Assembly (NCBI GenBank): GCA_017557195.1
Contig: JAFZAL010000017.1
Location: 1-64,000 of the forward strand
DNA: 64,000 nt
DNA from: Thermoguttaceae bacterium
GTDB taxonomy: Bacteria > Planctomycetota > Planctomycetia > Pirellulales > Thermoguttaceae
Reading direction: 5' to 3'
The position numbers and the translations under genes were made by a program. Shown in pieces: positions 271-63,677 of this stretch. The notes under the pieces were generated by a model. The model was given only the letters and a program-made list of their open reading frames with translations. It did no database searches and was not told the origin of the DNA. The stretch's first letter is position 1. Every line of letters starts with the position of its first letter.

Positions 271-4773
<4,503 letters not shown>

Positions 4774-4790: not shown

Positions 4791-8630
<3,840 letters not shown>

Positions 8631-9186: not shown

Positions 9187-9214
9187 TTGACATCTCGAAC
9201 AGATGATATATATT
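9187..9214 (+). promoter_or_regulatory. Putative promoter of pgi
   Basis: TTGACA (9187-9192) and TATATT (9209-9214) are spaced by 16 nt, about 170 bp before the pgi start. A second TTGACA lies at 9131-9136 with a poorer -10 candidate. Confidence 0.45.
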
Positions 9215-9295
9215 CTTGATAAAAGTTTATTGAGTTAAAACGAGTCGTTTTGACAACAACGGCGATTGGATTTGTTTCGAGAAGAGTTGATGAGG

Positions 9296-9334
9296 CGCTT
9301 GCGTTTCTCGCAACTCGCAACTCGCAACTCGCAA
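9296..9334. repeat. Heptamer array (CTCGCAA)x4 with octamer core
   Basis: The octamer CGCTTGCG (9296-9303) is followed by four perfect CTCGCAA units at 9307, 9314, 9321 and 9328. It lies between the promoter candidates and the start of pgi. Confidence 0.85.
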
Positions 9335-9389
9335 CTGTTGTACAAACGGCTTGCTGCGGTTTCCCTCGAACATTCATTTTCATACAGCC

Positions 9390-42956: not shown

Positions 42957-43253
42957 TGTATACAATTAGACTCAATCTCTCCCAAAAAGTTCCAAGATTG
43001 AGTCCCCCGTTTCCGAAATAGCGTTATAATTATAATCTCTCTTATTATAATTAAAATCGTCAGATTTAAAGGGATAGTCAAGCGATTTAACGAAAAAAAC
43101 CTCAAAATTTTTGATAATTTAGGGAATATAGGCAACAAAATCGAGATTTATATAGCGAACAGATATAAATTATTATAGATAAGTCGTATATTTTCCACAA
43201 ATGGAAGCGCAGTATAATATTAAGCGCTTCCCGATTCAGTTATAGAAATTTGA

Positions 43254-45173: not shown

Positions 45174-45179
45174 TGGGAG

Positions 45180-45358
45180 GTGGTAAGTTGTAAGTGGTAA
45201 GTAGTAAGTGGTAAGTGGTTAGTTGTTAGTGGTTAGTGGTAAGTAGTAAGTGGTAAGTTGAAAGTTAGTTGAGCGCTTGCGTACTAACCACTAAAAACTT
45301 ATTACTAACCACTGATTAGCGCTTGCGTACTTAATGCTTACCACTTGAAACTTACTGC
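45180..45358. repeat. Longest heptamer array (GTGGTAA type), upstream of treZ
   Basis: At least twelve consecutive 7-nt units (GTGGTAA, GTTGTAA, GTAGTAA, GTGGTTA, GTTGTTA) run from 45180. The octamer CGCTTGCG occurs twice (45274-45281 and 45320-45327), followed by complementary CTAACCA/CTTACCA units. The whole can fold as long imperfect arms. Confidence 0.92.
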
Positions 45359-45367
45359 TATTATAAT

Positions 45368-46531: not shown

Positions 46532-49500
46532 ATGAACAAAGCCTCAAAATCGTTGAAAATCTTTATCAGCTACGGACACGAAATTGGAGCAGTAGACGAC
46601 TCTGGAAATCCATATTCGAATCCGAATAACGAAAGCGTCGTTCATCAAATCAAGACGTATCTGGAAAGTCGTGGACATGAAATCTGGTTGGATAAAGATA
46701 AAATCAAGCCGGGGGACGACTGGCGAAAAGCAATTTACAACGGAGTTGAATGGTCGGACGTTGCATTGATCTGTCTGTCTCACAAAGCGATGAAGCCCAA
46801 CGGGGTTTGCCGAGACGAAATATCCATTGCAATGGGCGTTCGCGGCGGAAATATGTTCTCTGTCAAGCTGGAAGCGTTGGAAGACGCCGAGTATCCGGCG
46901 TATCTGCTAAACCGTCAGCTGTTTTCTAAATTTCAGGATTGGCGCATCCATTGTATAGAAGACAACATTGATGAAGCCTGGCTCGATAAAAACCTGGAAA
47001 CGCTTGCCCAATCTCTGGAAGAAGAGAATGTTTGGCGATACGGCGTTGAAATGGTTGAACTCAAGAAACTCCTCAAGCCCTGGAACATGAACAGTCGGCT
47101 TCGGAGTCTGGATCGCGGTTCACAGTACCTTTATAACGATGAAACGGATGAATACGAGAAAAAAATAGTTCACAAATTCTGTGGACGCGAGTCTCTTTTT
47201 GAATTGTTTGAAAACGAGAAGTCCCAGGAAGCCTATCTGGAGTCAGACCGCATTTTATGGCTCAAAAAAGGTCCCGGTTTTGGAAAGAGCCGATTTGCGG
47301 CAGAGCTTCTTTATCGATATTATTTCGCAATCAGCGCTGCTTATTTTGTTGAATACAATCTGGAAGAATCCCACAAATCGCAAACGTTTATTAAATCCGT
47401 TGCATACCAGCTGGCTCAGACGAATTCCTCTTATCGGGAAAGACTGTTAGGCGTTCTCAGAGCGAATCTGGATGAGATAAACCGACAAATTGACAACCCG
47501 GAAAAGCTGTTTAAAACGCTGGTTGTTGATTTATTAGAGGACGAGTTCGACGAAGAAAGAACGACTCAATGGATTCTGGTTGACGCTCTGGACGAAGCGA
47601 CGGAGAACAGCCGTAACGAGATTGCATCGTTGATCAGCCAAAACATTGACAATCTGCCGTCGTGGATTCGCTTTTATATTACGTCTCGAGACAATGACAA
47701 TGCAGTTAATCAAAGCTTCAACGATTTTACGCCCATTGACTTCGAGGACGAGGAAAACGTCAACGACATTCTGGAATACATTCGCAGCGAATTCAGCGCC
47801 TTGGGGCTTTCCGTCTCGGAAGAATTGATAAATATTCTTCTGGAAAAGTCCGAGGGAACGTTCCTGTATCCGGAAATGGTCTTTCGCGATCTGGAGAAAA
47901 ACGCGTTTACGGTCGACGATATTCGCGATTTGCCCAAGGGCGTAATCGGGTATATTCATGCCCAGTTTGAGCGTCTTTTCGAAGATAAATTGGAATCGTA
48001 TAATACAGAAATTCGTCCGTGGCTGGGGTATGTTTTAACGTCTTGCGAACCGATCCCGCGCGGCGTGTTAAAATACGCTTTGGGAATTCGGGAAGATTCT
48101 GAACTCGAGCGTCGATTAAATCTTCTGGGAACGTTTTTTGTTCAGTCCGGCTCTACAGACGAAGATACAGTTGCTCCATTCCACAAAAGCGTTATTGACT
48201 ACTGCTTTAATAAAAACGTTTCCTTTATTTTCTACGTTGATCCAGATGAAGCCAAAGAACGATTTGCACAAACCGGTTTGGGATTGTACGAATCCGGCGC
48301 TTTGCAATGGATAAAAAGAACCGACGAAAAGCCGGATATCGCGCAGCGTTACTTTTTAACGTGGCTGCCATCTCATTTAATGAACGCGAACGATTCCCCA
48401 AAATCGGCGGCTGTCCTGTCGGATTTCGCATTCTTGATGAAACGGCTGCGATTCGGAAACGTAGAACGCGTTTTGCTGGACTATATTCTTTTCAGAGGAA
48501 ACCTTGATCGAATTTCAAAAGACTGCAGCGCCTATTTTGACGTTATTTGCAGTAACGCGCATTATTTGCGCCATAACAGCGAGGACAATCCCGCATACAA
48601 GATTATGCTTCAAATCGCCACTGAAGTTGCTGACGATTGCCCTGTAACGCTGGCGGCGGAACGTTGGCTCAACCCGGAAGAAGGCGATTCCCCCTGCGAC
48701 TGGTTCTGGATTAATAAAGTCAACCGTCCCAAAGAATACCAGCCCAGCCCGTATAAACTTGTAATCGAGTATGCTGGCGATCACGCGATACTTCTTTCCA
48801 ACGGCAACGCTTTGTCCTGGGGAACAGACGATTATAACCTTCGGATTTGGGATCTGGAAACAGGCGCATGTAAAGTTGTTATGAAAGGACATACAGATGA
48901 AGTCTATAGAGTCCTTGAGCTTCGCACCGGCGACTTTCTCTCCTGGAGTAAAGATAGAACCTTGCGTATTTGGTCGCCGGATGGAACGTGCAAAGCCGTA
49001 TCGGACGGAAATACCGATTCTGACCGGGGCTTTTTAGAACTTCGTTCTGGCGCAATTCTTTCATGGTGTATTTATGCTCTAGTCGAAAAAAAAAGTTATG
49101 TAGGTCAAGAAGAAAAATCAATCCGAATCTGGGCTCCTGACGGCAATCTTATATCAGTAATAAGAGGGCACTCTAAACACATCAAAGGCGCAATCGAGCT
49201 GCAATCCGGCGAGATACTTTCATATAGCGACGACTCCCAACGAATTTGGTCGACAAATGCGCCAAACAGTGAAGTTAGAACTGTTCTTGAAGGACGTTCA
49301 CAATGGATCGAAGGCGCCAGAGAACTCCGTTCCGGCGACATTCTGACATGGGACAATGAATCATTGCATCTTTGGTCTTCTGACGGGGAACGTAAAGCCG
49401 ATCTGGAAGGACATACAAACAACGTCAGAGAAGCTATTGAACTTGACTCTGGAGATATTCTGTCCTGGTGTTATGGAGATGACAATACGCTGCGTCTCTG

Positions 49501-52261
49501 GTCTCCCGACGGCGTTTGCAAAGCTGTTCTTGAAGGACATAATAACTTGATTTATGGAGCTATCGAACTTCGTTCCGGAGACCTTCTTTCATGGGACAGG
49601 GACGGCGTCATGCATCTTTGGTCTCCCGATGGCGTTAGCAAGGCGGTTCTTGAAGGACATACAGATTATATCATCGGCGCCAAAGAACTCAGTTCTGGCG
49701 ATATTCTTTCGTGGAGCAAGGATTCAACTATTCGTCTTTGGTCGCCCGATGGCGCATGCAAAGCCGTTCTGAAAGAACGTACGGATTATGTCAAGGGCGT
49801 GATTGAACTTCCTTCTGGGGATATTCTCTCATGGAGCAATGATCAATCCTTATGTATCAGGTCTATAAAGAGTATTCATATAACCATAGAAGAAGGACAT
49901 ATTGCCCCCATAGACGACGTTTTGAAACTTAGTTCCGACAACGTTCTGTCCTGGTGCGGCGACAGGCTAAACGGAAGCAAAGATCATACATTGCGTCTTT
50001 GGTCTCCAAACGGTAAATGTATTGCTGTTATGGGCAAGCATAAACTTGGAATCAATGGCGCTATTGAATTGAAATCTGGCAATATTCTTTCCTGGAGCGA
50101 CGATAAAACTCTGCGTATTTGGTCTCCCAAAGGAAAGTGTATAGCTGTTCTGAAAGGTCACCATGAAAGAATTGGAAACGCTATAGAGCTGAGTTCTGGA
50201 GAGATTGTTTCTTCATGTAGATTTCTCGTTTGTCATGATAACACATTGCGTCTTTGGTCTCCAGACGGGACGTGTAAAGCCGTCATGGAAGGACATACCG
50301 ACATTGTCTGGGGAACTAAAGAACTTCGTTCTGGCGATATTATTTCGTGGAGCAGCGATCGCACATTGCGAATTTGGTCTGCCGATGGAAAGTGTAAAGC
50401 GGTTCTGAAAGGGCATACAGACGATCTTGATAACGTCATGGAACTTCGTTCTGGCGATATTCTTTCCTGGAGCAGAGATGCAACTTTACGCATTTGGTCT
50501 CCTTATGGGGATTGTAAAGCTGTTATGGAGGGACATGAAAGCTGGATTGAAGGCGCTAAAGAACTTCGTTCTGGAGACATTCTCTCTTGGTGTTTATCTG
50601 GAAATGATTACACTTTGCGCCGTTGGTCTCCTGATGGGACTTGTAAAGCTGTTATGGAGGGGCATACAGATGAAGTCAAAGGAGCAATAGAGTTGGATTC
50701 TGACGATATTCTTTCATGGAGTTGGGATCAAACTTTGCGTATTTGGTCGCCAGATGGGTCATGTAAAGAAATAATTGAGCAGGACGATCCTCGGTATGAC
50801 AGATTGTATGCCATGTTTTGGGAGGATCGAGTTTATGAACAATTTTATTCTAAACGATCCGCTTGTGGTATTGAGTTACAACACGATTATAAGCCAATCG
50901 CCCAGTGGAATGGCGTTGAATGCACCCCCCTGTTTGTTGGCGCTGGACGTCTGTGTGTTTGGTATGGAAGCAATGTTGAGTTTCTCCAGCTCAACTATGG
51001 CAATCATACGAGCGTTTCTTTTAGTCAGACTTGCCAATTAATTTCACATGAAATTGAAGAGTCAAACCTGACAGAATATACTCCAATATCTCCTGTTATG
51101 GAGGATGACGATGTTTCTGAAGAAAATGACGATGCGTTTGAAGAAATCAACGATGCTTTAATTGATGAAAGCTATTCAACGCAAGTCAATTTTTTTGAAA
51201 TTATCGGTAAAAACATTGATACTCTTGGAAATCATCTTCATGAGTATTACCAAAAGGCTGAAAATGGAGATCTTAATTCTCAAATTACTCTTGGCCGCAT
51301 CTTTTACAATGGTTTTGGAGTTCCTGTAGATAAAAGTGAAGCCATAAAATGGTGGCTCAAAGCGGCGGAACAAGGAAATATTGAGTCTCAAGCCGCCGTA
51401 GCTATGGGCTATGAGAATGGCGATGGCATTGAACAAAACATCCCGGAAGCCATAAAATGGTATCGAAAAGCGGCTGAACAGGGACATGCGATATCGCAAT
51501 TAAAGCTTTTCTATTTGCTTTTGTTTACAGATAATACAGAAGCGATCAAATGGCTGACCAGTGCAGCTGAACAAGGAAATGTGGATGCACAATTTGGTCT
51601 GGCGTTATGCTATCATACCGGAAAAGGCTGCCGTCCAGATATGGAAAAGGCCATAAAGTGGTATTTTGAAGCGGCTAAGCATGGACACCCTCAGGCTCAA
51701 TACGCAATTGGCTCTTACTATCAGGATATCAAAGGAGATATAGAAGAAGCCATTAAATGGTATCGCAAAGCGGCGGGAAATGGAAATGCAAGCGCTCAAT
51801 ATAATTTAGGTCAATGCTATTATCAAGGCGATGGCGTTGAGCAAGATAGCGAAGAAGCTGTAAAATGGTTTTTAAAGGCGGCAGAACAGGATGACGACTC
51901 TGCCCAATACCTTCTTGGCGTTTGCTATATCACCGGAGACGGCGTTCCTAAGAACTCTACAGTTGCTCTTGACTGGTTTCATAAAGCTGCGGATCAAGGA
52001 GATGACAGCTCTATGTACGCCATAGGTTTGTGCTACTATAAAGGCGATGGCGTTGAGCAAGATAGCGAAGAAGCTGTAAAATGGTTTTCAAAGGCAGCGC
52101 AAAAAGGAAATGCAAGAGCGCAATTCTATTTAGGGGTTTGCTATTATAATGGCGAAGGCGTTGAACGAGATAAAGCAGAAGCCAAAAAATGGTTGAATGA
52201 AGCGGCAAAGCAAGGGAATGAGGATGCTATTAAAGCGTTAAACTCATTGAAGGGTAAATAA
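46532..52261 (+). CDS. TIR - STAND NTPase - WD-like propeller - Sel1 protein
   Basis: A giant 1909-aa soluble protein. Residues 7-165 are a TIR domain (KIFISYGHE, LDKDKIKPGDDWRKAI, SDVALICLS; Glu96 in GVCRDEI fits the NADase glutamate position). Residues about 215-560 are a STAND/NACHT-type NTPase with Walker A GPGFGKS (247-253), Walker B WILVDALDEA and FYITSR as sensor. Residues 560-745 are helical. Residues 750-1410 hold 16 WD-like units of about 40 aa (consensus SGDILSWSxDxTLRIWSPDG, CKAVLEGHTD). After an acidic linker, residues 1572-1909 hold nine Sel1 repeats. The plan fits a ligand-sensing switch whose TIR would cleave NAD or signal. A role in phage defence is inference. It stands alone. 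Confidence 0.9.
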   Translation: MNKASKSLKIFISYGHEIGAVDDSGNPYSNPNNESVVHQIKTYLESRGHEIWLDKDKIKPGDDWRKAIYNGVEWSDVALICLSHKAMKPNGVCRDEISIAMGVRGGNMFSVKLEALEDAEYPAYLLNRQLFSKFQDWRIHCIEDNIDEAWLDKNLETLAQSLEEENVWRYGVEMVELKKLLKPWNMNSRLRSLDRGSQYLYNDETDEYEKKIVHKFCGRESLFELFENEKSQEAYLESDRILWLKKGPGFGKSRFAAELLYRYYFAISAAYFVEYNLEESHKSQTFIKSVAYQLAQTNSSYRERLLGVLRANLDEINRQIDNPEKLFKTLVVDLLEDEFDEERTTQWILVDALDEATENSRNEIASLISQNIDNLPSWIRFYITSRDNDNAVNQSFNDFTPIDFEDEENVNDILEYIRSEFSALGLSVSEELINILLEKSEGTFLYPEMVFRDLEKNAFTVDDIRDLPKGVIGYIHAQFERLFEDKLESYNTEIRPWLGYVLTSCEPIPRGVLKYALGIREDSELERRLNLLGTFFVQSGSTDEDTVAPFHKSVIDYCFNKNVSFIFYVDPDEAKERFAQTGLGLYESGALQWIKRTDEKPDIAQRYFLTWLPSHLMNANDSPKSAAVLSDFAFLMKRLRFGNVERVLLDYILFRGNLDRISKDCSAYFDVICSNAHYLRHNSEDNPAYKIMLQIATEVADDCPVTLAAERWLNPEEGDSPCDWFWINKVNRPKEYQPSPYKLVIEYAGDHAILLSNGNALSWGTDDYNLRIWDLETGACKVVMKGHTDEVYRVLELRTGDFLSWSKDRTLRIWSPDGTCKAVSDGNTDSDRGFLELRSGAILSWCIYALVEKKSYVGQEEKSIRIWAPDGNLISVIRGHSKHIKGAIELQSGEILSYSDDSQRIWSTNAPNSEVRTVLEGRSQWIEGARELRSGDILTWDNESLHLWSSDGERKADLEGHTNNVREAIELDSGDILSWCYGDDNTLRLWSPDGVCKAVLEGHNNLIYGAIELRSGDLLSWDRDGVMHLWSPDGVSKAVLEGHTDYIIGAKELSSGDILSWSKDSTIRLWSPDGACKAVLKERTDYVKGVIELPSGDILSWSNDQSLCIRSIKSIHITIEEGHIAPIDDVLKLSSDNVLSWCGDRLNGSKDHTLRLWSPNGKCIAVMGKHKLGINGAIELKSGNILSWSDDKTLRIWSPKGKCIAVLKGHHERIGNAIELSSGEIVSSCRFLVCHDNTLRLWSPDGTCKAVMEGHTDIVWGTKELRSGDIISWSSDRTLRIWSADGKCKAVLKGHTDDLDNVMELRSGDILSWSRDATLRIWSPYGDCKAVMEGHESWIEGAKELRSGDILSWCLSGNDYTLRRWSPDGTCKAVMEGHTDEVKGAIELDSDDILSWSWDQTLRIWSPDGSCKEIIEQDDPRYDRLYAMFWEDRVYEQFYSKRSACGIELQHDYKPIAQWNGVECTPLFVGAGRLCVWYGSNVEFLQLNYGNHTSVSFSQTCQLISHEIEESNLTEYTPISPVMEDDDVSEENDDAFEEINDALIDESYSTQVNFFEIIGKNIDTLGNHLHEYYQKAENGDLNSQITLGRIFYNGFGVPVDKSEAIKWWLKAAEQGNIESQAAVAMGYENGDGIEQNIPEAIKWYRKAAEQGHAISQLKLFYLLLFTDNTEAIKWLTSAAEQGNVDAQFGLALCYHTGKGCRPDMEKAIKWYFEAAKHGHPQAQYAIGSYYQDIKGDIEEAIKWYRKAAGNGNASAQYNLGQCYYQGDGVEQDSEEAVKWFLKAAEQDDDSAQYLLGVCYITGDGVPKNSTVALDWFHKAADQGDDSSMYAIGLCYYKGDGVEQDSEEAVKWFSKAAQKGNARAQFYLGVCYYNGEGVERDKAEAKKWLNEAAKQGNEDAIKALNSLKGK

Positions 52262-53646: not shown

Positions 53647-53749
53647 GTGGTAAGTGGCAAGTGGTTAGTAAAGATTTTTCGTCCTTCCCGCTTGCCGCCG
53701 ACCATCGCTTTGCGTCCTAACCACTAACCACTTAATACTTACTACTAAA
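53647..53749. repeat. Heptamer array between rsmG and the GH43-like gene
   Basis: GTGGTAA, GTGGCAA, GTGGTTA and GTAAAGA, a diverged core CGCTTTGCG, then CTAACCA, CTAACCA, CTTAATA, CTTACTA and CTAAAAT. The last unit overlaps the start codon of the next gene. Confidence 0.85.
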
Positions 53750-54718
53750 ATGAAATACAACGCTATTCTGTGTACAATCGTATTGAGTTTGTTAACCTCT
53801 TTTGCTTCTGCGGAAGACGGTCAGCAGTATTTTGCTTTTTCTTACTTTACCGGCAATGGCGAGCATGGGCTTCATCTGCTTGTCAGTCAGGACGGCTTGA
53901 AGTGGGACAAGGTCAACGGCGGAGTTCCGCTGTACCGTCAGACGCTGCCGGGCGACAACCTCATGCGCGATCCCAGCATTTGCAAAGGTCCGGACGGGAC
54001 GTGGCATCTGGTCTGGACGACGTCGTGGAAACGTGACTTTATCGGTCATTCCACCAGCGCCGATTTAATCCACTGGACGCCCTCGCAGGCGATTCCCGTC
54101 ATGGCGCACGAGCCGACCTGCCGCAACACCTGGGCGCCGGAAATTTTCTACGACGACGCCACCGAGCAGTTTTACATCTTCTGGTCGTCGACCATTCCCG
54201 GACGCTTTTCTGAACGCGGAACCAGCGAGTCCAGCCTCGACCATCGCATGTACTTTGTAACAACCAAAGACTTCAAAACGTTCTCCCCAACGAAGCTGTT
54301 TTTCAATCCCGGGCACAACGTCATCGACGGCATGATCGCCAAGCTGGACAAGACGTATTATCTGTTCTATAAAGACGAACGGCTCAAGCGCCCGGCGGAA
54401 GACGGTTCTATCGTAGAGGGCAAAAGCATCTGGCTGGCAACCGCGCCGTCTGTAGAAGGTCCGTATACCGCCGGGAAAATCGTCTCCCCGATGAACTGGG
54501 TGGAAGGTCCAACGGCGTTTCGAGTCAACAACCGCTGGCTGGTTCTCTACGACTGCTACGCCGCTCATCATTACGGGGCAATCGAGTCCGCCGACGGCGT
54601 CAACTGGACGGACGTAACCGACAAGCTCTCCATTCCCAAAGAAGTTCGTCACGGAACGGTTTTCGAAATCAGCCAGAAGGAATACGAGGCGTTGAAGGCA
54701 GTAGGCAGTAGGCAGTAA
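53750..54718 (+). CDS. Secreted GH43-like five-bladed propeller hydrolase
   Basis: A 322-aa exported protein (signal peptide with a cut near ASAE). It has a GH43/GH32-type propeller layout: RDPSICKGPDGTWHLVWTT, TWAPEIFYD (candidate Asp/Glu region), NVIDGMIAKLDKTYYLFYKD, and VEGPTAFRVNNRWLVLYD with the conserved E-G-P. Such enzymes act on arabinans, xylans or galactans. The final codons are made by a heptamer array, giving the end AVGSRQ. The start overlaps another heptamer array, so no ribosome site is present. Confidence 0.8.
   Translation: MKYNAILCTIVLSLLTSFASAEDGQQYFAFSYFTGNGEHGLHLLVSQDGLKWDKVNGGVPLYRQTLPGDNLMRDPSICKGPDGTWHLVWTTSWKRDFIGHSTSADLIHWTPSQAIPVMAHEPTCRNTWAPEIFYDDATEQFYIFWSSTIPGRFSERGTSESSLDHRMYFVTTKDFKTFSPTKLFFNPGHNVIDGMIAKLDKTYYLFYKDERLKRPAEDGSIVEGKSIWLATAPSVEGPYTAGKIVSPMNWVEGPTAFRVNNRWLVLYDCYAAHHYGAIESADGVNWTDVTDKLSIPKEVRHGTVFEISQKEYEALKAVGSRQ
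54697..54717. repeat. Heptamer array (GGCAGTA)x3
   Basis: Three perfect GGCAGTA units inside the 3' end of the GH43-like gene; they encode GSRQ-type residues and the stop codon. Confidence 0.85.
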
Positions 54719-54732
54719 GGCTAGGACTATCA

Positions 54733-55545
54733 ATGATCAATTATGGATTAAAGGACAGAGTGGCTCTAATCACCGGGGCGAACAACCCGCAGGGGATTGG
54801 AGCGACAACGGCTCTTGCGTTTGCTCGCGAAGGGGCAAAGGTCGTTTTAGTCTATAAGAAAATCTTCCGTCCGTTTGATACAAGCAAGACGGATCAAAAC
54901 GGGGTTGACCGATATTATCAGTCAAACGCCGGAAATGCAGACGTCGTCGAAAGCAAACTCAAGGAGATGAACGCGGACTATCTTGTTTTGGAAAGCGACA
55001 TATCCAACGAGGACGCGGTTAAAGAAATCTATTCGACGGTTATTGAACGGTTCGGACGAGTTGACGTTCTCGTCAATAACGCGGCGGTCGACGACGAAAA
55101 CGGTTTCGATACAATCGAAAAGATTACTCAAGACGTCATCGACAATGCCTTCGCGGTCAACGTCCGGGGAAGCTTGTTGATGATGCGGGAATTTGTCAAT
55201 CGCCGCAGCGATTACGGAAGAATCGTCAATATTTCTACAGACGCGGCACAAGTCTTTGCTGGCCAAATTACCTACGGAGCGAGCAAGGCAACGTTAGAAG
55301 CGCTGACTCGCAGCATCGCTCTTGAAGTCGGGAAGTACGGAATTACCGTGAACTGCGTTGCACCCGGCCCCACTCAAACCGGATGGATTGACGCGGAGCT
55401 GGAAAAAGCCGTCGTTCCGATAATCCCCATGGGAAAACTGATTCAACCGGAAGACATTGCAGAAACGATTCTATTCCTGGCAAGCAAACAGGCAAGATAT
55501 CTTACCGGACAAGTCATCAAAGTCTCCGGCGGACACGCGTTATAA
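54733..55545 (+). CDS. Short-chain dehydrogenase/reductase
   Basis: A 270-aa NAD(P)-dependent oxidoreductase of the classical SDR type. Cofactor site TGANNPQGIG (residues 14-23), NNAAVDDENG, catalytic Ser in VNISTDAAQ, Tyr-x-x-x-Lys in ITYGASKA, and VNCVAPGPTQTGWI. The end VSGGHAL is typical of FabG-like reductases. The substrate is not known. It is 14 bp after the GH43-like gene with AGGA as ribosome site, so it may be co-expressed and act on a sugar product; that is inference. Confidence 0.87.
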   Translation: MINYGLKDRVALITGANNPQGIGATTALAFAREGAKVVLVYKKIFRPFDTSKTDQNGVDRYYQSNAGNADVVESKLKEMNADYLVLESDISNEDAVKEIYSTVIERFGRVDVLVNNAAVDDENGFDTIEKITQDVIDNAFAVNVRGSLLMMREFVNRRSDYGRIVNISTDAAQVFAGQITYGASKATLEALTRSIALEVGKYGITVNCVAPGPTQTGWIDAELEKAVVPIIPMGKLIQPEDIAETILFLASKQARYLTGQVIKVSGGHAL

Positions 55546-55653
55546 ACTCCATTTGTCTATAATAATTCCTTATTATACAACATACACTTTCTGTGTTACA
55601 GTTGCCAGATATACATTTTTCTCAAAAAATCGTTAATTTATAGCATTCACCCC

Positions 55654-55681
55654 TTGAAAAATAGAAAACATGTATCATAAT
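55654..55681 (+). promoter_or_regulatory. Putative promoter of the SET-HNH gene
   Basis: TTGAAA (55654-55659), 16 nt, CATAAT (55676-55681) in an AT-rich 222-bp gap, about 85 nt before the ATG. Confidence 0.4.
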
Positions 55682-55767
55682 TATGTTATGTGTTATGAAA
55701 CTTTTAGATTCGTTCATAGAAGTTTTCACAAAAATTGGATTCAATCATCGTACATGAAAGGATTGAG

Positions 55768-56640
55768 ATGACAAGAGAAACTGCCAAAAAGTATTTTGCC
55801 CACGAAAAATGCAAATTGATCGACAAGTCGGGTGGCAATAACGTCAATGGGAAAACGGTAGTCGCTATAGCGCCTATTAAAAAACGTGAGCTTGTTTGTT
55901 ACGTGTGTGGAACGATTTATTCAGAAAATGGTCCCTATCGACCTGATGATGGTTATATTTGCGATTCTTTGGTAGACGATGTATTTTCATTTTACGATGA
56001 AAACAATGATCGTTCCATAGACCCGGGAAAAGTTCATAAACCAAAAACAAACCGAGTTACAAAACATATTTCAGGTTTTATCAATCACAGTTGTGAACCA
56101 AATTGCGAAATCATTTTCGACGAAGATGAAAAAATGTTGAAAATTGTCGCAATAGAACCAATTGGCGTTGATGAAGAAATTACCATCTATTATAGCGATA
56201 CCTGGTTTGAACGACGAGGTATCTATTGCCAATGTGGTAAAGCCAAATGCAAATTCTCCAAAGAAAGGGAATTGACTAAGAAGGAGAAGGATTACGCTAA
56301 AGAGGGCGAGAGAATCGAAAGAATCGAAAATAATCCTAAAAGGAATCGAGCGCTTCGAGACAAAGTGATCAAAAATAGTAAAGGTAGATGTCAAGTCTGT
56401 GGCAGACAACTTACTGAAATGTATGGTGAGTTTGGAGCAGGAGTTCTTGAAGTTCATCATGAAACGCCTCTGGGAGCACGTAAGGGCAAAGGTTCAATTA
56501 CACATCTTGAAGATTTGATTGCCGTTTGTCCCAATTGTCATGCAGTTTTGCATAACATGGAAAAATACCCTACAGATGCTACAACCAAAAGTTTGAAAAG
56601 AACAATTAAACAAAGACGGGAAGAAAATGAGGAAGAATAA
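55768..56640 (+). CDS. SET-domain methyltransferase fused to HNH nuclease
   Basis: A 290-aa cytoplasmic fusion. Residues about 10-150 form a SET domain: GKTVVAIAPIKKRELV at the start, the SAM/pseudoknot motif GFINHSCEPNC (N106-H107-S108) and the EEITIYYSDTWF strand. A post-SET zinc motif follows (C154, C156, C161). After a charged helix (165-200) an HNH domain runs from 205 to 262 with C208/C211, the LEVHHE pair (H230, H231) and C254/C257/H258 (AVCPNCHAVLH). The SET part should methylate lysines in a protein; the HNH part should cut DNA. The start is ATG 55768 with AAAGGA upstream; TTG 55735 is the alternative. More AT-rich than its neighbours, with its own promoter and terminator: probably acquired. 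Confidence 0.88.
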   Translation: MTRETAKKYFAHEKCKLIDKSGGNNVNGKTVVAIAPIKKRELVCYVCGTIYSENGPYRPDDGYICDSLVDDVFSFYDENNDRSIDPGKVHKPKTNRVTKHISGFINHSCEPNCEIIFDEDEKMLKIVAIEPIGVDEEITIYYSDTWFERRGIYCQCGKAKCKFSKERELTKKEKDYAKEGERIERIENNPKRNRALRDKVIKNSKGRCQVCGRQLTEMYGEFGAGVLEVHHETPLGARKGKGSITHLEDLIAVCPNCHAVLHNMEKYPTDATTKSLKRTIKQRREENEEE

Positions 56641-56666
56641 TTATCTTCTATATTGATCTTTATCGC

Positions 56667-56707
56667 ACGGACAGACGGAAATGATTCAGGTCTGTCCGTT
56701 GTTTTTT
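56667..56707 (+). terminator. Rho-independent terminator of the SET-HNH gene
   Basis: A 10-bp perfect stem (ACGGACAGAC / GTCTGTCCGT) with a 13-nt loop, followed by a T-rich tract (TGTTTTTTA), 27 bp after the stop codon. Confidence 0.85.
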
Positions 56708-56783
56708 AGATTCTGAACAGAGTGATTGAAATCAGCTGAGAAGAGAGTATGAGGAGCTAAAGGCGCAGAGACTGTAGAAAAAA

Positions 56784-56864
56784 TTACGCAAGCGCAGTCT
56801 CGCTAAAAGAGGCGAGAATCTCGCTTGCGTAATTGCTAATTGTAAATTGACAATTGTTAATTTT
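56784..56864. repeat. Heptamer array TAATTGC type with two octamer cores
   Basis: CGCAAGCG (56787-56794) and CGCTTGCG (56822-56829) form a hairpin-like pair, followed by TAATTGC, TAATTGT, AAATTGA, CAATTGT and TAATTTT. The last unit supplies part of the iorB stop codon. Confidence 0.85.
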
Positions 56865-57459
56865 ACTTGATCATCGCTGCCATTCCGGCGTCGAAAGCCG
56901 CGAGGTTGACGTCGACGAATTTTGGCTTGCAGCATTTCTCGATAGCTTCTTTCCAGGATTCAACCGGCATATCCAGTTCCGTTGACATAGCGCCCAGCAA
57001 GACCGTGTTGGCGGCGCGGATGTTACCCAGCTTCTCGGCAATCGCTTCTGCGTCGAGATAAATCAATCGGCTAAACGCCTTTTCCAGACGCTGTTGAGCG
57101 TCGTCCGGATAGGTCGCTGCGCCCATCGAAACCGTAACCGGGACAATTCGCTGCGCGTTGACAACCGCCAAGCCGTCTGCCGCCAGATATTCGTGATACC
57201 GAAGGGCTTCGATTCGTTCCAGAGCGACCAGAACGGACGCGGTTCCCGGGGCAATTAACGGGCTGTGGACTTTCGTTCCGTATCGAATTTGAGCGACAAC
57301 CGACCCGCCGCGCTGCGCCATGCCGTGAACTTCGTTCGTCTTGACGTCAAACCCGCAAATCATTGCCGTTTGAGCGCAAATCTCGCTCGCCAATAAAATT
57401 CCCTGACCGCCGACGCCTACCAGCGCAATGCTTTTTGTATCTTGATTTTCGTTGCTCAT
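56863..57459 (-). CDS. iorB: Indolepyruvate oxidoreductase subunit beta (2-oxoacid:ferredoxin gamma-like)
   Basis: A 198-aa subunit of the ferredoxin-dependent indolepyruvate oxidoreductase that converts aryl pyruvates to acyl-CoA. Family marks are LVGVGGQGILLASEI at the N-terminus, KTNEVHGMAQRGGSVVAQIR and NTVLLGAMS. The catalytic TPP-binding subunit IorA is not in the window, so the gene is separated from its usual partner, or iorA lies beyond. It is downstream of the M16-like gene on the same strand across 142 bp with heptamer arrays. Confidence 0.9.
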   Translation of the reverse strand: MSNENQDTKSIALVGVGGQGILLASEICAQTAMICGFDVKTNEVHGMAQRGGSVVAQIRYGTKVHSPLIAPGTASVLVALERIEALRYHEYLAADGLAVVNAQRIVPVTVSMGAATYPDDAQQRLEKAFSRLIYLDAEAIAEKLGNIRAANTVLLGAMSTELDMPVESWKEAIEKCCKPKFVDVNLAAFDAGMAAMIK

Positions 57460-57482
57460 TTGTTGTAACTGGATAATAGGAT

Positions 57483-57517
57483 TAGCTATTAGCTGCTAGC
57501 TTTTAGCTACTAGCTGA
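57483..57517. repeat. Heptamer array (TAGCTNN)x5
   Basis: TAGCTAT, TAGCTGC, TAGCTTT, TAGCTAC and TAGCTGA, exact 7-nt period, between the iorB start and the M16-like gene. Confidence 0.85.
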
Positions 57518-57584
57518 AACAGAAGCTAACAACCAAAATTCATTATACTCTTTTGTTTAAATAATACAAGTAGGCGTTAAACTT

Positions 57585-57619
57585 TAGCTCTTAGCTAACG
57601 TCTAGCAGCTAAAAGCTAA
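57585..57619. repeat. Heptamer array TAGCTNN / NAGCTAA
   Basis: TAGCTCT, TAGCTAA, CGTCTAG, CAGCTAA and AAGCTAA. It covers the end of the M16-like gene and encodes its last residues LAFSC and stop. Confidence 0.8.
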
Positions 57620-58831
57620 ATTCTCGCCGCCCAGCGTTGTAATCTGGAAGTCTCTGGGAGAATTCTCCGCCAGGTACCGATTGACGTCTTCGACGGTAAG
57701 GGACTCGATTTTAGCCAAATGCTCGTCCAGAGTCCGGATCGTTCCCAGATTTATCCAGTCGCTGGCAATGCTGACGGATCTGGCGCCGCAGGATTCCTGT
57801 TCCATAATCAAAGACGTCCGTTCCCGCGTCTTGACCCGGTTCAGTTCTTCCGGAGTAACGCCTTCGGCAGAAAGCTTTTGAATCTCTGAAAGCAAGCCGT
57901 CCAAAGCAACTTCTGCATTTTCGGAACTGGTTCCCAAAGAGCAGAAGACCGCAGCGCAGGTCGGATACATAAAGTTATACGCGCTAACTGAATAGCACAA
58001 TCCCTGCCGCTCTCGAAGCTGGGTAAACAGACGTCCGCTGGCTTCGCCTCCCAAGACGGACGTCCCCACCATTTGCCGATAAAAATCCGGATGCGAATAC
58101 GGAACGCCATCGTAGGCGACAACGATCTGCGTTTGCTGAGCGTCGTACTCTATATGGCGATTCTGCCGAGTTGGCGCTTCGGACTGGATTGTCAGCGACC
58201 CTTGCGACTTCCACGAGCCAAACAGCGTCTCGACCTCGTCCTGAAGCTCGTTCCAGTCAAACGCTCCGGCGACGGACAGAATCGTTCCGTCCGGGCGATA
58301 ATACTTTTTATAGAAAGACGTTAGCTCGTCCAATTGTACGGAATGAAGGACGTCGATATCGCCGTAGGAATGTTCGTTCCACGGCGAAGGGAAAAAGTCT
58401 TTTTGCGCAGCCAGACGCGCAACCAACGCTGGATTGTCTTCAATTCCAAATCGTTCTAAAATAACGCTTTGTCGAGACGATTCCAAAGAATCTTCGTCAA
58501 AATGCGCCCCTTGCGCCAAGGCGGCGTAGATTTCCAGAACGTCGTGAAGATAAATTGCCGGAAACGCAGTAAGATAGGAAACGTATCCGATTCCGACCTT
58601 TTCTCCCCGTTCGACGCCGCGAAGCAAAAGTTCTTCGATAAACTGACGGCTATTCCATCGACCGCAGCCTCGAAGAGCCATCTCACAGCAAAACGACGCT
58701 ACCCCGCGGCGCGAAGGATCTTCGTACCCAACTCCTGCGGGCATTTCCAAAGAAAAAGCGCAGGATTTCAAATACGGCATTGATTCTGCCAACAACGTCA
58801 GTCCGTTAGAATACGTTTTCGTATATATCAT
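57602..58831 (-). CDS. M16-family protein lacking the zinc-site residues
   Basis: A 409-aa protein with the two-lobed M16B fold: MIYTKTYSNGLTLLAESMPY, and the second-half motifs SVSAYNFMYPTCAAVFCSLGT and LNRVKTRERTSLIMEQESC. In active M16 peptidases the first lobe carries H-x-x-E-H in GLAHFLEHMLF. Here the same place reads GVASFCCEMAL (residues 43-53), so the two His and the Glu are Ser46, Cys49 and Glu50. It is therefore expected to be a non-catalytic partner, but no active M16 partner is next to it. An extended -10 box is almost at the start codon. Confidence 0.85.
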   Translation of the reverse strand: MIYTKTYSNGLTLLAESMPYLKSCAFSLEMPAGVGYEDPSRRGVASFCCEMALRGCGRWNSRQFIEELLLRGVERGEKVGIGYVSYLTAFPAIYLHDVLEIYAALAQGAHFDEDSLESSRQSVILERFGIEDNPALVARLAAQKDFFPSPWNEHSYGDIDVLHSVQLDELTSFYKKYYRPDGTILSVAGAFDWNELQDEVETLFGSWKSQGSLTIQSEAPTRQNRHIEYDAQQTQIVVAYDGVPYSHPDFYRQMVGTSVLGGEASGRLFTQLRERQGLCYSVSAYNFMYPTCAAVFCSLGTSSENAEVALDGLLSEIQKLSAEGVTPEELNRVKTRERTSLIMEQESCGARSVSIASDWINLGTIRTLDEHLAKIESLTVEDVNRYLAENSPRDFQITTLGGENLAFSC

Positions 58832-58850
58832 AGACGCATATTATATCAGG

Positions 58851-58922
58851 GAATGGGGATTCGGGAATAGGGAGCGGAATCAATTCGGAATTCGTAATGC
58901 GGAATGCGGAATTACGCAAGCG
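58851..58922. repeat. Heptamer array GGAATGC type
   Basis: GAATGGG, GATTCGG, GAATAGG and a GAGCGGA-like unit, then GGAATTC, GTAATGC, GGAATGC, GGAATTA and the core CGCAAGCG (58915-58922). Confidence 0.8.
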
Positions 58923-59105
58923 CTTCAACAATTTTTCCTACCTATCACACATTCGCTATATTTTTTATTTTATCAATATCGTTTGTTTTTCTAAATTGTT
59001 ATTTTTGAACGAATTGTCAAAACCCTGATAAGTATCAAATGCAATAATATCTAAATGTGAATTATGAAAAAATTTTTAAAAGAGAAAAAAATGAGTAAGG
59101 GAGTA

Positions 59106-59133
59106 TTGGCAAAAAAACCGTATTTAATATAAT
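59106..59133 (+). promoter_or_regulatory. Promoter of the exosortase locus
   Basis: TTGGCA (59106-59111), 16 nt, perfect TATAAT (59128-59133), about 90 nt before the exosortase start. Confidence 0.6.
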
Positions 59134-59223
59134 GTGCAGGAGCGTAAATATAAAAATTGGGAACGTTTTTATATCAACGCGCTCTAATTAATAAAAATGA
59201 AAAATGGATTGTAATTATACGAT

Positions 59224-60261
59224 ATGAGTCAAAGTCCGTCAACTCAACAAAAAGATCCAACGCCTTCTATGCCGCCCGAATCAGCGGCAGAAGAACGTAA
59301 CATATACGCCAAGGAAGAAATATCCATGTGGGCGATGTTTGGGATATTGCTTGTCGCGCTGACGCTTGCCTATTCCAAATCGCTTCAAATAGCAATGGAC
59401 TCATGGAATACGGAACTGTATTCTCATGGATATTTAATTCCGTTTATGGCGGCGGCTTTATTATGGCTTCGCCGCGAACCGTATCGTCCATTTCCGATGT
59501 GGCATCGTTGGGTTGGAGTGGCGCTGTTGGCATTAACGCTTATCGGATCGTATCTTGCAGAATTTTTTGCGCAAGAGTTTGTCATGCAGATGTCGTTTGT
59601 TCCCGCAGTGGCATTCTGCTTTTTGATAGCAGGCGGTTGGCCGCTGTTCCGATGGGCGGGTCCAATATGCTTTATTTTGTTTTTCATGTTCCCTTTATAT
59701 TGGGGGCTTGAACGGCACTTGCTGGAACCAATGCAGCTTTGGGCGACAACGTCCAGCGCTTTTATGCTTCAGCTGTTTGGTTTTATGGCCATACAGGAAG
59801 GAAACGTTATTACAATTAATGACATTCCGCTCAACGTTGTAGGAGCGTGCAGCGGTCTTCGCATGACCACCATTTTTGTAGCGTTGTCCTTGTTTTTTGT
59901 ATTGATCAGCCAACGCACCTGGTGGGAAAACCTGATAATTTTACTTTGCGCGATTCCGATTGCCCTGATTGTCAATATTATGAGAATCACCGTAACCGGA
60001 ATTGGCTATTCAATTTTTGGCGTCGGCGGTACGGCGGAAAAATTGATTCACGACTGGTCCGGCCTGGCAATGGCGCCTATGGCATTGATTATACTTTGGG
60101 GCGTAGTTCGATTGCTGTCAATTCTGTTTTACGAAGAGGAAACAGAAGACGCTTCAGCAATAAATATTTTCGAAAGACCGGGGACTGGCTCAGTCAAAGA
60201 GGAAAACGTAGCGTCAGAAGAAGAATCAGACGACGATTCCAATACAAAAAATAAAAAATGA
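59224..60261 (+). CDS. Exosortase (PEP-CTERM transpeptidase)
   Basis: A polytopic inner-membrane protein (345 aa, about eight membrane helices) of the exosortase/archaeosortase family. It cleaves and re-anchors PEP-CTERM proteins. The catalytic triad is in place: Cys209 in NVVGACSGLRM, Arg254 in VNIMRITVTG and His276 in LIHDWSGL. A short cytoplasmic N-terminal tail and a charged Glu/Asp-rich C-terminal tail flank the membrane part. The PEP-CTERM protein at 39963-42956 is a candidate substrate. It is first in a line with the Wzc-like and EpsI-like genes. The exact exosortase subtype was not determined. Confidence 0.92.
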   Translation: MSQSPSTQQKDPTPSMPPESAAEERNIYAKEEISMWAMFGILLVALTLAYSKSLQIAMDSWNTELYSHGYLIPFMAAALLWLRREPYRPFPMWHRWVGVALLALTLIGSYLAEFFAQEFVMQMSFVPAVAFCFLIAGGWPLFRWAGPICFILFFMFPLYWGLERHLLEPMQLWATTSSAFMLQLFGFMAIQEGNVITINDIPLNVVGACSGLRMTTIFVALSLFFVLISQRTWWENLIILLCAIPIALIVNIMRITVTGIGYSIFGVGGTAEKLIHDWSGLAMAPMALIILWGVVRLLSILFYEEETEDASAINIFERPGTGSVKEENVASEEESDDDSNTKNKK

Positions 60262-60357
60262 TTGCACAAACGCGATAAACAGAACGTATAAATTATTAAC
60301 GTATTAGTTATATTCGTTTTAAATTTTTATTGAAACTTTAGGATAAGGGTTATTCAC

Positions 60358-62712
60358 GTGAGTACGAACTTTCCAAATCAGGACAGACGACCGGAAAACA
60401 ATGCATCGTCAACGGCTTTGGCGCCGGTAACTCAGCAGGGGACTTCGCTGCGAGTGATTCAGCCTCAGCCGGAAATTGTTAAACAGGCGCCCAGACCAAG
60501 CGATATCATTCATGGATTTCGCCGTCGATGGGGCTGGGCTTTGCTGGCTGGCGTTATGGCGTCAACAATTGCCGTTGCCGCTGGCTGGATTATGATTCCG
60601 GTTACATATTATACGGAAGCATGGCTTAACGTCCAGTCTCAAGCTCCGTATATCGTTTCGCCGCTCAATTCCAAAAACACCTATTTGAATCAAAGAGGCG
60701 CTCAGGCGGTTTTGATCCGCAGTCCCTTCGTATTGAAAACGGTTGTTCGTGAATTGGACATCAACAGCTATCCGGAAATGAGAGGCGTTATTGATCCAGT
60801 CAGCTGGATTGGACAGCGTCTTCGCGTTTCCTTCCCTGGCGGAACGGACATTATGGCCATCGGCATGTCTGGCAAAGACCGCAACATGATTACAGAAATT
60901 GTCAACGCGGTCAAAGACGCATACATGCAGGAAGTCGTTACGGTTGACCGCGAAAACCATCTTCGCCGTAAAAACGTTCTGGAACAGGCGTACACTCGAA
61001 ACCGTCAGCAGATTGATAAAAAGATGTATCTGTACAAGGAACTTGCTGACCAGGTTGGTTCCAGCGACTCAGACGCGGTCAAACATTCTGCGCGTTTGAA
61101 GCTGCAAACAATCGACGGTTTGAAGAGCAAAGTCATGGCCCTTGATTCGCAAATCGCCGGAATCAATACCAGAATCGAATTGCTCCGCGCTCGTTTGGCG
61201 GTCTTGCCGGAAACAGAACAGCCTTTAGACCCGGAAGCTCAGGCGCAGCGTCAGGCTAAAGCTTTGGAAGCGGCAACTCAACAGATGGTTCGTCAAGACC
61301 CTGAAATCTCAAAAATGCTTCAGCGTATTGAATACATGGACGCTCGAATTGAGGCGACAAGACAAGTTGTCAAAGACGGAGACAATTCTCCTAAAATTCA
61401 GCGCATGATCACCGCCAGAAATGAAGTTGCAAAACAACTTGAGGAACGCGCCATGCAGCTTACGCCTTTGATTAAAGAAGAACTTCGTCAGAGACTGGCG
61501 GAAGGCAAAGCGACAACGCCTCCAACTGCCGCTGAAAAAATTCAGGCTGCCATTGACTCCAATCTGTTGGATAAATCCGTTTATGAAAAAGAGCGCGAAG
61601 CAATCTACGCTCAATTTATCGACGCTGTCCATCAGGCAGAAAAACTCGATACGTTCTCTTCTGAACTGGAAAGCCGTAAAATTGAACTGGATCGTTTGAA
61701 GGAAATCACATACAAGATGGGATCTGACCTTCAGCATTGGCAAATTGAACTCGAAGCGGCTCCTCGCGTTACAGAAATGCGCGCTGCTGAAGTGCCGCTT
61801 GAAAGCAATATTCAAGCTAAAGTTAAAAAACTGGCAATGATGGGCTTTGGAGCTTTCTTTGTTGGCGTTATAAGCGTTTTGGGTCTGGACTTCCTTGGAC
61901 GCCGCGTCAATTCGGCGGACGAAATCAACTACGGTCTGGGACTGCGCGTTATCGGCGACTTGCCATTGGTCAGTTCCGGTTTGCGAGGCGGTAAAATGAA
62001 CAACCGCGTTCAGGGTATGTTGATTGAAAGTATCGACAACATTCGAACCGCCCTGCTCCACCGAGCGGAAGTCGAAGGGCTCAAAGTTATTATGGTTACC
62101 AGCTCCATGGAAAAGGAAGGTAAAACCACCGTATCCAGCCAGCTGGCAGCGTCCCTTGCTCGAAGCGGTCGACGAACGCTCCTGTTCGACGGCGACTTGA
62201 GACGTCCGGGCGACCACCGTATGTTCGAGAAACCGCTTTATCCTGGAATTTCAGAATTCTTCCGCGGCATGGTTACTCTGGAAGAAATCATCACCGAAAC
62301 CCGAGTCGAAAACCTGTTCCTCGCCCCGGCTGGGCATCCGCACCCGGAAGCATTGCAGGCGTTGGCGCGAGGCGAAGTCATCATTGACGCCTTCGCCAAA
62401 CTGCGAGAAGAATTCGACTTTATCATCGTTGACTCCGGACCTATTCTGACGGACTCTGACTCGCTCATGTTTGCCAAGGTTCTCGACGGTCTGGTGCTGA
62501 GCGTTTTGAGAGACGTCAGTCGACTGCCTCGAATTTACGAAGCGTGCGAACGCGCTCGCGCGGTTAACGTCAAACTCCTCGGAGCGGTTATCAACGGCAT
62601 TACGTTCTCCAAGTATCGTTCGTACTATCGTCCGTACACGATTGAAGTTCCTAACAAGCGCCGTCCGCAGCAACAGCAGCAACAACAGCAGCGGCCGCAA
62701 GGCAAGCAGTAA
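60358..62712 (+). CDS. Wzc-like polysaccharide co-polymerase / BY-kinase
   Basis: A 784-aa inner-membrane protein controlling export and chain length of exopolysaccharide. A Wzz-type N-terminal membrane helix (about 60-85), a long periplasmic coiled coil, the second helix (about 490-515) and a cytoplasmic CpsD-type kinase with Walker A MEKEGKTT, Walker A' LLFDGDLRRPG and Walker B FDFIIVDSGPI. A Tyr cluster (KYRSYYRPYT) sits near the end and is the likely autophosphorylation site; a poly-Gln tail closes the protein. It starts at a GTG, 60358, with AAGGG upstream. It lies between the exosortase and EpsI-like genes. Confidence 0.9.
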   Translation: MSTNFPNQDRRPENNASSTALAPVTQQGTSLRVIQPQPEIVKQAPRPSDIIHGFRRRWGWALLAGVMASTIAVAAGWIMIPVTYYTEAWLNVQSQAPYIVSPLNSKNTYLNQRGAQAVLIRSPFVLKTVVRELDINSYPEMRGVIDPVSWIGQRLRVSFPGGTDIMAIGMSGKDRNMITEIVNAVKDAYMQEVVTVDRENHLRRKNVLEQAYTRNRQQIDKKMYLYKELADQVGSSDSDAVKHSARLKLQTIDGLKSKVMALDSQIAGINTRIELLRARLAVLPETEQPLDPEAQAQRQAKALEAATQQMVRQDPEISKMLQRIEYMDARIEATRQVVKDGDNSPKIQRMITARNEVAKQLEERAMQLTPLIKEELRQRLAEGKATTPPTAAEKIQAAIDSNLLDKSVYEKEREAIYAQFIDAVHQAEKLDTFSSELESRKIELDRLKEITYKMGSDLQHWQIELEAAPRVTEMRAAEVPLESNIQAKVKKLAMMGFGAFFVGVISVLGLDFLGRRVNSADEINYGLGLRVIGDLPLVSSGLRGGKMNNRVQGMLIESIDNIRTALLHRAEVEGLKVIMVTSSMEKEGKTTVSSQLAASLARSGRRTLLFDGDLRRPGDHRMFEKPLYPGISEFFRGMVTLEEIITETRVENLFLAPAGHPHPEALQALARGEVIIDAFAKLREEFDFIIVDSGPILTDSDSLMFAKVLDGLVLSVLRDVSRLPRIYEACERARAVNVKLLGAVINGITFSKYRSYYRPYTIEVPNKRRPQQQQQQQQRPQGKQ

Positions 62713-62715
62713 TTT

Positions 62716-62797
62716 ACAACTGACAATTAGCAATGAACAATTAGCAATTTACGCAAAGCGCAACTCTCAATTGCAAATCGCAAATTGCTAATTGTTC
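62716..62797. repeat. Heptamer array ACAATTA / GCAATTT
   Basis: ACAATTA, GCAATGA, ACAATTA and GCAATTT, a diverged core CGCAAAGCG, then CAATTGC, AAATCGC, AAATTGC and TAATTGT. It lies between the Wzc-like and EpsI-like genes inside a likely operon. Confidence 0.85.
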
Positions 62798-62813
62798 TTT
62801 ATTCTCCAATAAT

Positions 62814-63677
62814 ATGCAATTTAAAAATTTCATTCCTGCCGCATTTAAGATATACATTCCTGCCGCTGTTGGTCTGATTTTAATTGGATTCCTTTACGTC
62901 TCAACCAACATGCTGGGGTTTTCACAGCAATACATGGATTATCTTATTAAAACCGTTCAGGAAACGCCGGAAAAATTTGGCAATTGGACAGGAGTTGATA
63001 ACGAGCAAGCAAACGAAGCCATCACAAAAGAATCTGGCGCGATGGCGCAAATTTCTCGAGTTTACGAAAATCCTCTCTTTGGCGAAAGCATAAATTTGTA
63101 TTTTATTGCGGGAATTTCATTCCGCGTGGCAATGCATTCTCCGATCGTCTGCTATCCCGGTTCCGGATTCGAACAGCAGGGAGAAGTTCAGACTTTCGAC
63201 TTCGATTATATTTACACCGATTCCCAAACCGGTAAAAAGTACGCCCGCAAAGCGACTTTTTTTACTGTCGTCTTTAAAAAAGAAAGTCATTCTGAACGAG
63301 TGTTTTGGGCGTGGAACGACGGTTCCGGCTGGGTGGCGCCGCAGTTTGCGCGTCTGCACTATGGCGGACACATCCCATTGTGCAAATGTTATTTTTCGTA
63401 TGTTGACAATTCCCCAAGCGTCTACGATTTTGACAAAAAATACATTGTCGATTTTGCCGGGCGTTTTTTAAGCGATTTGGATAATCGCATGATCGTTGAC
63501 GGAAAGGTTCCCTCGGAATCAATAAAAATCAACCTGGGAGAACCGATTGACGGAGTCCAGCAGAGTATTGACGAACCTGATTCAACGCCGACAGAAACAG
63601 ACGTCGAACCAACGGAATTTCCGTCGTCTGACAGCTTTGATTCATTGATCAAAAATTCTGAAACAATAAATGAATAG
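62814..63677 (+). CDS. Exosortase-associated EpsI-like protein
   Basis: A 287-aa membrane-anchored protein. One N-terminal helix (about 12-35) anchors a periplasmic domain. The core of the EpsI family is seen in MHSPIVCYPGSGFEQQG, the conserved His-Ser-Pro and Cys-Pro-Gly stretch, and a YIYTDSQTG strand followed by VFWAWNDGSGW. In other species EpsI genes lie beside exosortases and serve polysaccharide or sorting function; the exact biochemistry is not known. An acidic Glu/Asp/Thr-rich tail follows residue 250. Confidence 0.85.
   Translation: MQFKNFIPAAFKIYIPAAVGLILIGFLYVSTNMLGFSQQYMDYLIKTVQETPEKFGNWTGVDNEQANEAITKESGAMAQISRVYENPLFGESINLYFIAGISFRVAMHSPIVCYPGSGFEQQGEVQTFDFDYIYTDSQTGKKYARKATFFTVVFKKESHSERVFWAWNDGSGWVAPQFARLHYGGHIPLCKCYFSYVDNSPSVYDFDKKYIVDFAGRFLSDLDNRMIVDGKVPSESIKINLGEPIDGVQQSIDEPDSTPTETDVEPTEFPSSDSFDSLIKNSETINE

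What the first reader, a model, noticed from the sequence alone, without database searches (positions are those of the whole stretch)
55768..56640. SET methyltransferase fused to an HNH nuclease
SET domains in bacteria are usually stand-alone protein-lysine methyltransferases. Here a complete SET plus post-SET zinc motif is joined to a complete HNH domain (LEVHHE, CPNCH) of the McrA-like type. All key residues of both look intact. The gene is more AT-rich than its neighbours and has its own promoter and terminator. A nuclease gated by, or targeted through, methylated chromatin-like proteins or phage proteins is conceivable.
Basis: partly seen in the sequence, partly recalled or inferred. Interest (0 to 1): 0.7.

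Follow-up and report, generated by a model that had tools for sequence, protein, structure and literature searches.

The report
SET methyltransferase fused to McrA-type nuclease
A gut-type bacterium carries one foreign-looking gene in which a protein-methylating (SET) domain sits exactly where a family of defence DNA-cutting enzymes normally carries its target-recognition domain; the combination was found nowhere else in the databases searched, so it is a real but so far one-of-a-kind design whose function has not been tested.

Summary
One ORF (55768-56640, +, 290 aa) encodes a SET domain with an intact post-SET zinc motif, then a complete McrA-type HNH module. Nearly all key residues are intact; one SAM-motif glycine is threonine, as in another SET group.

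In about 1,000 planctomycete genomes plus the phage, plasmid and viral collections, relatives of each half always lack the other. A combined DNA pattern found no second case in 84,980 prokaryote genomes (one of two codon variants only) or in viral contigs (both variants).

The gene is a species-specific insert of about 1.25 kb: in a same-genus genome its flanks lie 47 bp apart. Both halves share one low GC3 (0.29-0.32; neighbours 0.47-0.72), so it arrived as a unit, with its own promoter-like site and terminator.

The HNH half belongs to a module that usually follows a swappable N-terminal domain (a modified-DNA reader in EcoKMcrA and TagI). Here SET takes that slot. Best reading: a horizontally acquired, defence-type HNH nuclease targeted or gated by a SAM-using SET domain. 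Nuclease function is likely; methyltransferase activity is plausible; coupling is speculative. Novelty: new variant of a known kind, so far an orphan.

The parts
55558..56812 (.). species-specific insert of about 1.25 kb that carries only this gene
   Evidence: In same-genus genome G002 window 53750-55557 and 56813-59150 map to rc 6027-7828 and 7876-10208, 47 bp apart. G001 and G003 lack the insert and the preceding SDR gene too.
55654..55681 (+). promoter-like site TTGAAA-16-CATAAT
   Evidence: consensus scan, 10 of 12 matches; total number of sites not clearly above shuffles
55756..55762 (+). ribosome-binding site GAAAGGA, 5 nt before the ATG
   Evidence: sequence
55768..56640 (+). SET-HNH fusion gene, 290 aa
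55849..56193 (+). SET domain, residues 28-142 (GKT, NHSCEPN, EIT-I-YY)
   Evidence: Pfam SET E 1.2e-13; alignments; Foldseek of the low-confidence model gives only SET enzymes on top, MLL1 E 1.4e-6
56227..56250 (+). post-SET motif CxCx4C, residues 154-161; with C109 the expected zinc site
   Evidence: invariant and (the cysteines) 68
56251..56292 (+). short linker, residues 162-175, Lys/Glu-rich
   Evidence: between the last post-SET Cys and the start of the conserved HNH module
56293..56637 (+). McrA-type HNH module, residues 176-290, including the upstream EG...RN..LR helix motif
   Evidence: module boundary from alignment with 6 bacterial and 26 viral-contig relatives; EcoKMcrA aligned over residues 169-264
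56389..56556 (+). HNH core, residues 208-263: CxxC, EVHH, CPNCH, H262
   Evidence: Pfam HNH; invariant residues
56665..56707 (+). intrinsic terminator
   Evidence: hairpin -22.7 kcal/mol, z -4.5, followed by U6

Best explanation
A horizontally acquired single-gene nuclease of the McrA-type HNH group in which the usual N-terminal specificity or sensor domain has been replaced by a SET protein-lysine methyltransferase domain. Most likely it acts against incoming DNA (phage or plasmid). The HNH half, probably dimerised as in TagI and EcoKMcrA, cuts DNA. The SET half binds SAM and a lysine-bearing peptide, either on a protein bound to the invading DNA or on the enzyme's own Lys-rich linker or tail, and so decides where or when the nuclease acts. 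Shown here: the architecture, intact active-site residues, module replacement, acquisition as a unit. Inferred from families: DNA cleavage (about 0.85), SAM-dependent methyl transfer (about 0.6), defence role (about 0.55). Speculative: that methylation itself targets or gates the nuclease (about 0.3).
For: Both domains in one frame with active-site residues intact. H231 aligns with the second His of the HH pair in the EcoKMcrA chain; allowing for an assumed 10-residue tag this is H229, named as catalytic in PMC7145662. The HNH half matches type IV restriction and effector endonuclease models, EcoKMcrA and, weakly by fold, Cap5. Its relatives are C-terminal modules behind very different N-terminal regions, e.g. 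EVE in L029, and SET sits in that slot with a linker of about 14 residues. In related nucleases the non-catalytic domain directs cutting (PMC6212794). The gene is a species-specific insert with one foreign composition across both halves.
Against: No second SET-HNH protein was found, so conservation cannot show that coupling is functional. The G-x-G motif is G-x-T. The domains that SET replaces read DNA, whereas SET domains act on protein lysines. No partner gene, and no Hc1-type histone-like substrate in the genome. Models have low overall confidence (mean pLDDT 57).
Confidence: 0.45

Rival explanations
1. The SET half is used as a non-catalytic reader or sensor (a beta-clip fold that binds a peptide, DNA or SAM), taking the place of an SRA/EVE/NEco-type reader. 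For example it could sense SAM level, so that phage SAM-degrading enzymes release the nuclease.
For: It occupies the position of reader domains; one SAM-motif glycine is lost.
Against: N106/H107, Y142 and the post-SET cysteines are kept, which a pure binder would not need; the G-x-T motif also occurs in another SET group (L005).
Confidence: 0.2
2. A fortuitous recent fusion: two unrelated activities or a neutral joining, with no functional coupling.
For: Relatives of each half lack the other in about 1,000 genomes and in viral loci; no second example by pattern.
Against: The joint falls cleanly at both domain borders, both halves are complete with intact catalytic residues, and both share one GC3 (0.32 and 0.29), so the fusion probably predates its arrival in this genome and has stayed intact.
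Confidence: 0.2
3. A selfish, homing-type HNH gene whose SET half is incidental.
For: Single-gene insert with a clean empty site in G002; HNH nucleases are common in homing elements (general knowledge).
Against: The HNH module is of the restriction/effector type; no intron or intein signs; the insert lies between genes, and no duplicated target site was noticed at the junctions.
Confidence: 0.07
4. Assembly artefact: two genes wrongly joined in a metagenome bin.
For: Draft assembly with 239 contigs.
Against: One continuous ORF with uniform composition, in the middle of a 103.7-kb contig whose flanks are syntenic with same-genus genomes.
Confidence: 0.03

Closest known systems
EcoKMcrA (NEco-HNH; PDB 6ghc)
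   Same: Same HNH type, same order (N-terminal specificity domain, then C-terminal HNH), similar length (290 against a 287-residue chain); aligned from residue 169.
   Different: The N-terminal domain is SET, not the 5mC-reading NEco; no evidence of modified-DNA recognition.
SRA-HNH / EVE-HNH modification-dependent endonucleases (TagI; planctomycete EVE-HNH L029)
   Same: Modular nuclease with a swappable N-terminal targeting domain.
   Different: SRA and EVE read modified bases; SET is a protein-lysine methyltransferase fold.
Cap5 HNH-SAVED effectors of CBASS
   Same: Top Foldseek fold matches of the HNH half, though weak (E 4e-3); sensor plus HNH in one protein.
   Different: The sensor is C-terminal SAVED and there is a partner cyclase; none here.
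Bacterial and viral stand-alone SET proteins, and planctomycete Mur-ligase/cyanophycin-synthetase-like proteins with a C-terminal SET
   Same: SET core with NHSCxPN and post-SET motif.
   Different: No nuclease; at most about 34% identity to this SET half over the aligned length.

Membership tests
SET-domain lysine methyltransferases (Pfam PF00856 plus post-SET) | SET profile above the curated cut-off | tested here: met
   51.8 bits against 22.4
SET-domain lysine methyltransferases (Pfam PF00856 plus post-SET) | NHxCxPN, catalytic Tyr and post-SET CxCx4C | tested here: met
   N106, H107, C109, P111, N112, Y142, C154, C156, C161
SET-domain lysine methyltransferases (Pfam PF00856 plus post-SET) | G-x-G SAM motif | tested here: inconclusive
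   G28-K-T30; first Gly kept, second is Thr, as in the Mur-ligase-fused SET L005
SET-domain lysine methyltransferases (Pfam PF00856 plus post-SET) | lysine methylation activity | not testable with these tools
   needs the protein
McrA-type HNH endonucleases | HNH/beta-beta-alpha-Me core with four Zn cysteines, HH, N and H | tested here: met
   C208, C211, C254, C257, H230, H231, N256, H258, H262 invariant; Pfam HNH above cut-off
McrA-type HNH endonucleases | nuclease activity | not testable with these tools
   needs the protein
Type IV (modification-dependent) restriction enzymes | N-terminal domain that reads modified DNA bases (SRA, EVE, NEco) | tested here: not met
   N-terminal half is SET; Pfam reports no reader domain
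Type IV (modification-dependent) restriction enzymes | restriction of modified phage DNA | not testable with these tools
   needs plating assays
A conserved SET-HNH family | homologues that keep both domains | tested here: not met
   none among about 1,000 planctomycete genomes, phages and plasmids, viral contigs or genome contigs (AAT codon variant only)

The most novel reading that the evidence does not exclude
A bacterial immune nuclease controlled by protein-lysine methylation: the SET domain marks, or tests, a lysine on a DNA-bound protein or on the enzyme itself, and the attached McrA-type HNH cuts DNA accordingly, giving self/non-self discrimination through protein rather than DNA methylation.
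Probability: 0.25. Interest if true: 0.85.

Novelty: new variant of a known kind. Interest (0 to 1): 0.47.

Why it matters
Restriction enzymes of this type use DNA-reading domains to choose targets. A SET domain in that slot would mean that a prokaryotic nuclease takes its cue from protein methylation or SAM, a logic known from eukaryotic chromatin. The protein is 290 residues and stands alone, so the idea can be tested in a laboratory E. coli strain.

Tried and rejected
Conserved family: single-protein scans of genome contigs and viral contigs found no relatives; searches in family, order, class and phylum gave only one half at a time. Enterococcus raffinosus plasmid hit spanning residues 103-285 (H9): its N-terminal region is not SET; only HNH is recognised. 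Viral SET genes: all lack HNH. SET tree: placement unresolved because of long branches. Joint SET plus HNH alignment misaligned, so two separate half-supported models were made; overall confidence is low and domain arrangement should not be read from them. Hc1 substrate in the own genome: none. Literature: none of the searches for a SET-HNH fusion or a bacterial SET in defence turned one up; only open-access papers are held, so this is not proof of absence.

Full report
OBSERVATION. The ORF at 55768-56640 (+) is real: 290 aa from ATG, with GAAAGGA five bases upstream. Pfam finds SET (28-142, E 1.2e-13) and HNH (208-263, E 2.8e-5), both above curated cut-offs. The PDB sequence search gives EcoKMcrA for residues 169-264 and eukaryotic SET enzymes (MLL, SUV420H1, SMYD3, G9a) for residues around 100-162.

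ACTIVE SITES. Against planctomycete and viral SET relatives the query keeps N106, H107, C109, P111, N112, Y142 and C154/C156/C161. C109 plus the three post-SET cysteines is the usual post-SET zinc site (general knowledge). The one departure is G28-K-T30 in place of G-x-G; the SET attached to a Mur-ligase/cyanophycin-synthetase-like protein (L005) has G-Q-T, so this is not unique. The HNH half keeps every catalytic and zinc residue that is invariant in 26 viral-contig relatives: four zinc cysteines, H230, H231, N256, H258, H262. H231 aligns with the second His of HH in the EcoKMcrA chain; assuming a 10-residue tag in that chain, this is H229, called catalytic in PMC7145662. AlphaFold models made with SET rows or HNH rows give a partly confident SET core and a confident HNH module (overall mean pLDDT 57). 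Foldseek puts only SET enzymes at the top for the first (best E 1.4e-6) and Cap5 of CBASS for the second, weakly (E 4e-3).

ARCHITECTURE. Across relatives the HNH module starts with a conserved EG...(E/K)RN helix about 30 residues before the first zinc cysteine. In the query that motif (Y176-A-K-E-G180) begins about 14 residues after the last post-SET cysteine. In relatives the region before the module varies: EVE in L029, mostly unrecognised elsewhere. In characterised enzymes of this build the non-catalytic domain directs cutting to modified bases (PMC6212794). So SET has replaced the specificity domain of a modular nuclease, with a clean joint.

IS IT A FAMILY? No second example was found. 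Protein searches of about 1,000 distinct planctomycete genomes returned many HNH halves (residues about 170-285) and some SET halves (about 92-164), never both in one ORF. Phage and plasmid records gave HNH halves only (the one apparent longer hit is not SET). Viral SET genes lack HNH and viral HNH genes lack SET. A pattern requiring NHxCxPN and the HNH CxxC...Y...HH spacing, with 20 residues of slack, found the window alone: zero in viral contigs with AAT or AAC for the first Asn (a stricter form) and zero in 84,980 species genomes with AAT. The AAC form could not be scanned in the genomes, and fusions with other spacing or diverged motifs would be missed, so 'orphan' means within these limits.

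ORIGIN. In same-genus genome G002 the flanks (window 53750-55557 and 56813-59150) are separated by 47 bp, so the gene sits in a species-specific insert of about 1.25 kb; G001 and G003 lack it as well. GC3 is 0.32 in the SET half and 0.29 in the HNH half, against 0.47-0.72 in neighbouring backbone genes. The fusion therefore probably arrived ready-made, rather than forming from the genus's resident SET gene (L002). The insert has a promoter-like site, a strong terminator and no second gene. A separate species-specific insert about 3.5 kb upstream carries a TIR-NACHT-WD40-Sel1 protein.

MECHANISM. Most likely a defence-type DNA nuclease whose targeting or trigger domain is SET. DNA cutting is well supported by family (about 0.85). 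Methyl transfer is plausible (about 0.6) because the catalytic residues persist although one SAM-motif glycine is lost. A role against incoming DNA fits the HNH type, the PADLOC matches, the single-gene insert and the patchy distribution (about 0.55). How SET acts is open: marking or recognising a lysine on a DNA-bound protein, methylating the enzyme's own Lys-rich linker or tail, or sensing SAM. None of this is shown.

COMPARISON AND NOVELTY. By fold and residues the halves are ordinary members of SET and McrA-type HNH. The protein cannot be filed as a type IV restriction enzyme because the modified-base reader is absent. It works like a modular sensor-nuclease. No description of a SET-HNH protein turned up in the open-access library. 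Verdict: new variant of a known kind, an orphan, moderate interest, with a cheap decisive test.

Noticed in passing
46532-52261 (+): 1909-aa TIR-NACHT-WD40-Sel1 protein in a species-specific insert. The own genome holds roughly nine further copies with 64-84% identical N-terminal halves and repeat-rich C-termini (C140 twice, C57, C46, C195, C127, C61, C144); G002 has related copies, G001 and G003 match only in the Sel1 part: a lineage-specific expansion.
   Followed up: partly
L005 (G043:C8) and similar loci: Proteins of about 950-1150 aa matching the SET half in many related genomes; L005 has Mur-ligase domains (cyanophycin-synthetase-like) with a C-terminal SET carrying a G-Q-T SAM motif. 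A recurrent SET fusion that may deserve its own look.
   Followed up: partly
L002, L007, L008, L012 (own genome and same genus): Resident stand-alone SET protein; in L008 and L012 it is followed by a long Lys/Ala-rich, histone-H1-like tail (KKTAKKATVKK...).
   Followed up: no
53706-53749 and 56784-56863: Dispersed short repeats found in many copies in all genomes of the genus; the second includes a perfect inverted repeat (AATTACGCAAGCG...CGCTTGCGTAATT) and abuts the insert.
   Followed up: no
L066, reverse-complement positions about 1479-3163: In G002 a spot near window 45177-45362 carries two other accessory genes (formylglycine-enzyme-like and leucine-rich-repeat-like by eye), so this stretch of chromosome collects accessory genes.
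   Followed up: no
59224-63677: Exosortase (EpsH), a ParA/AAA protein and a DUF3485 protein in a row; a PEP-CTERM protein lies at 39963-42965.
   Followed up: no
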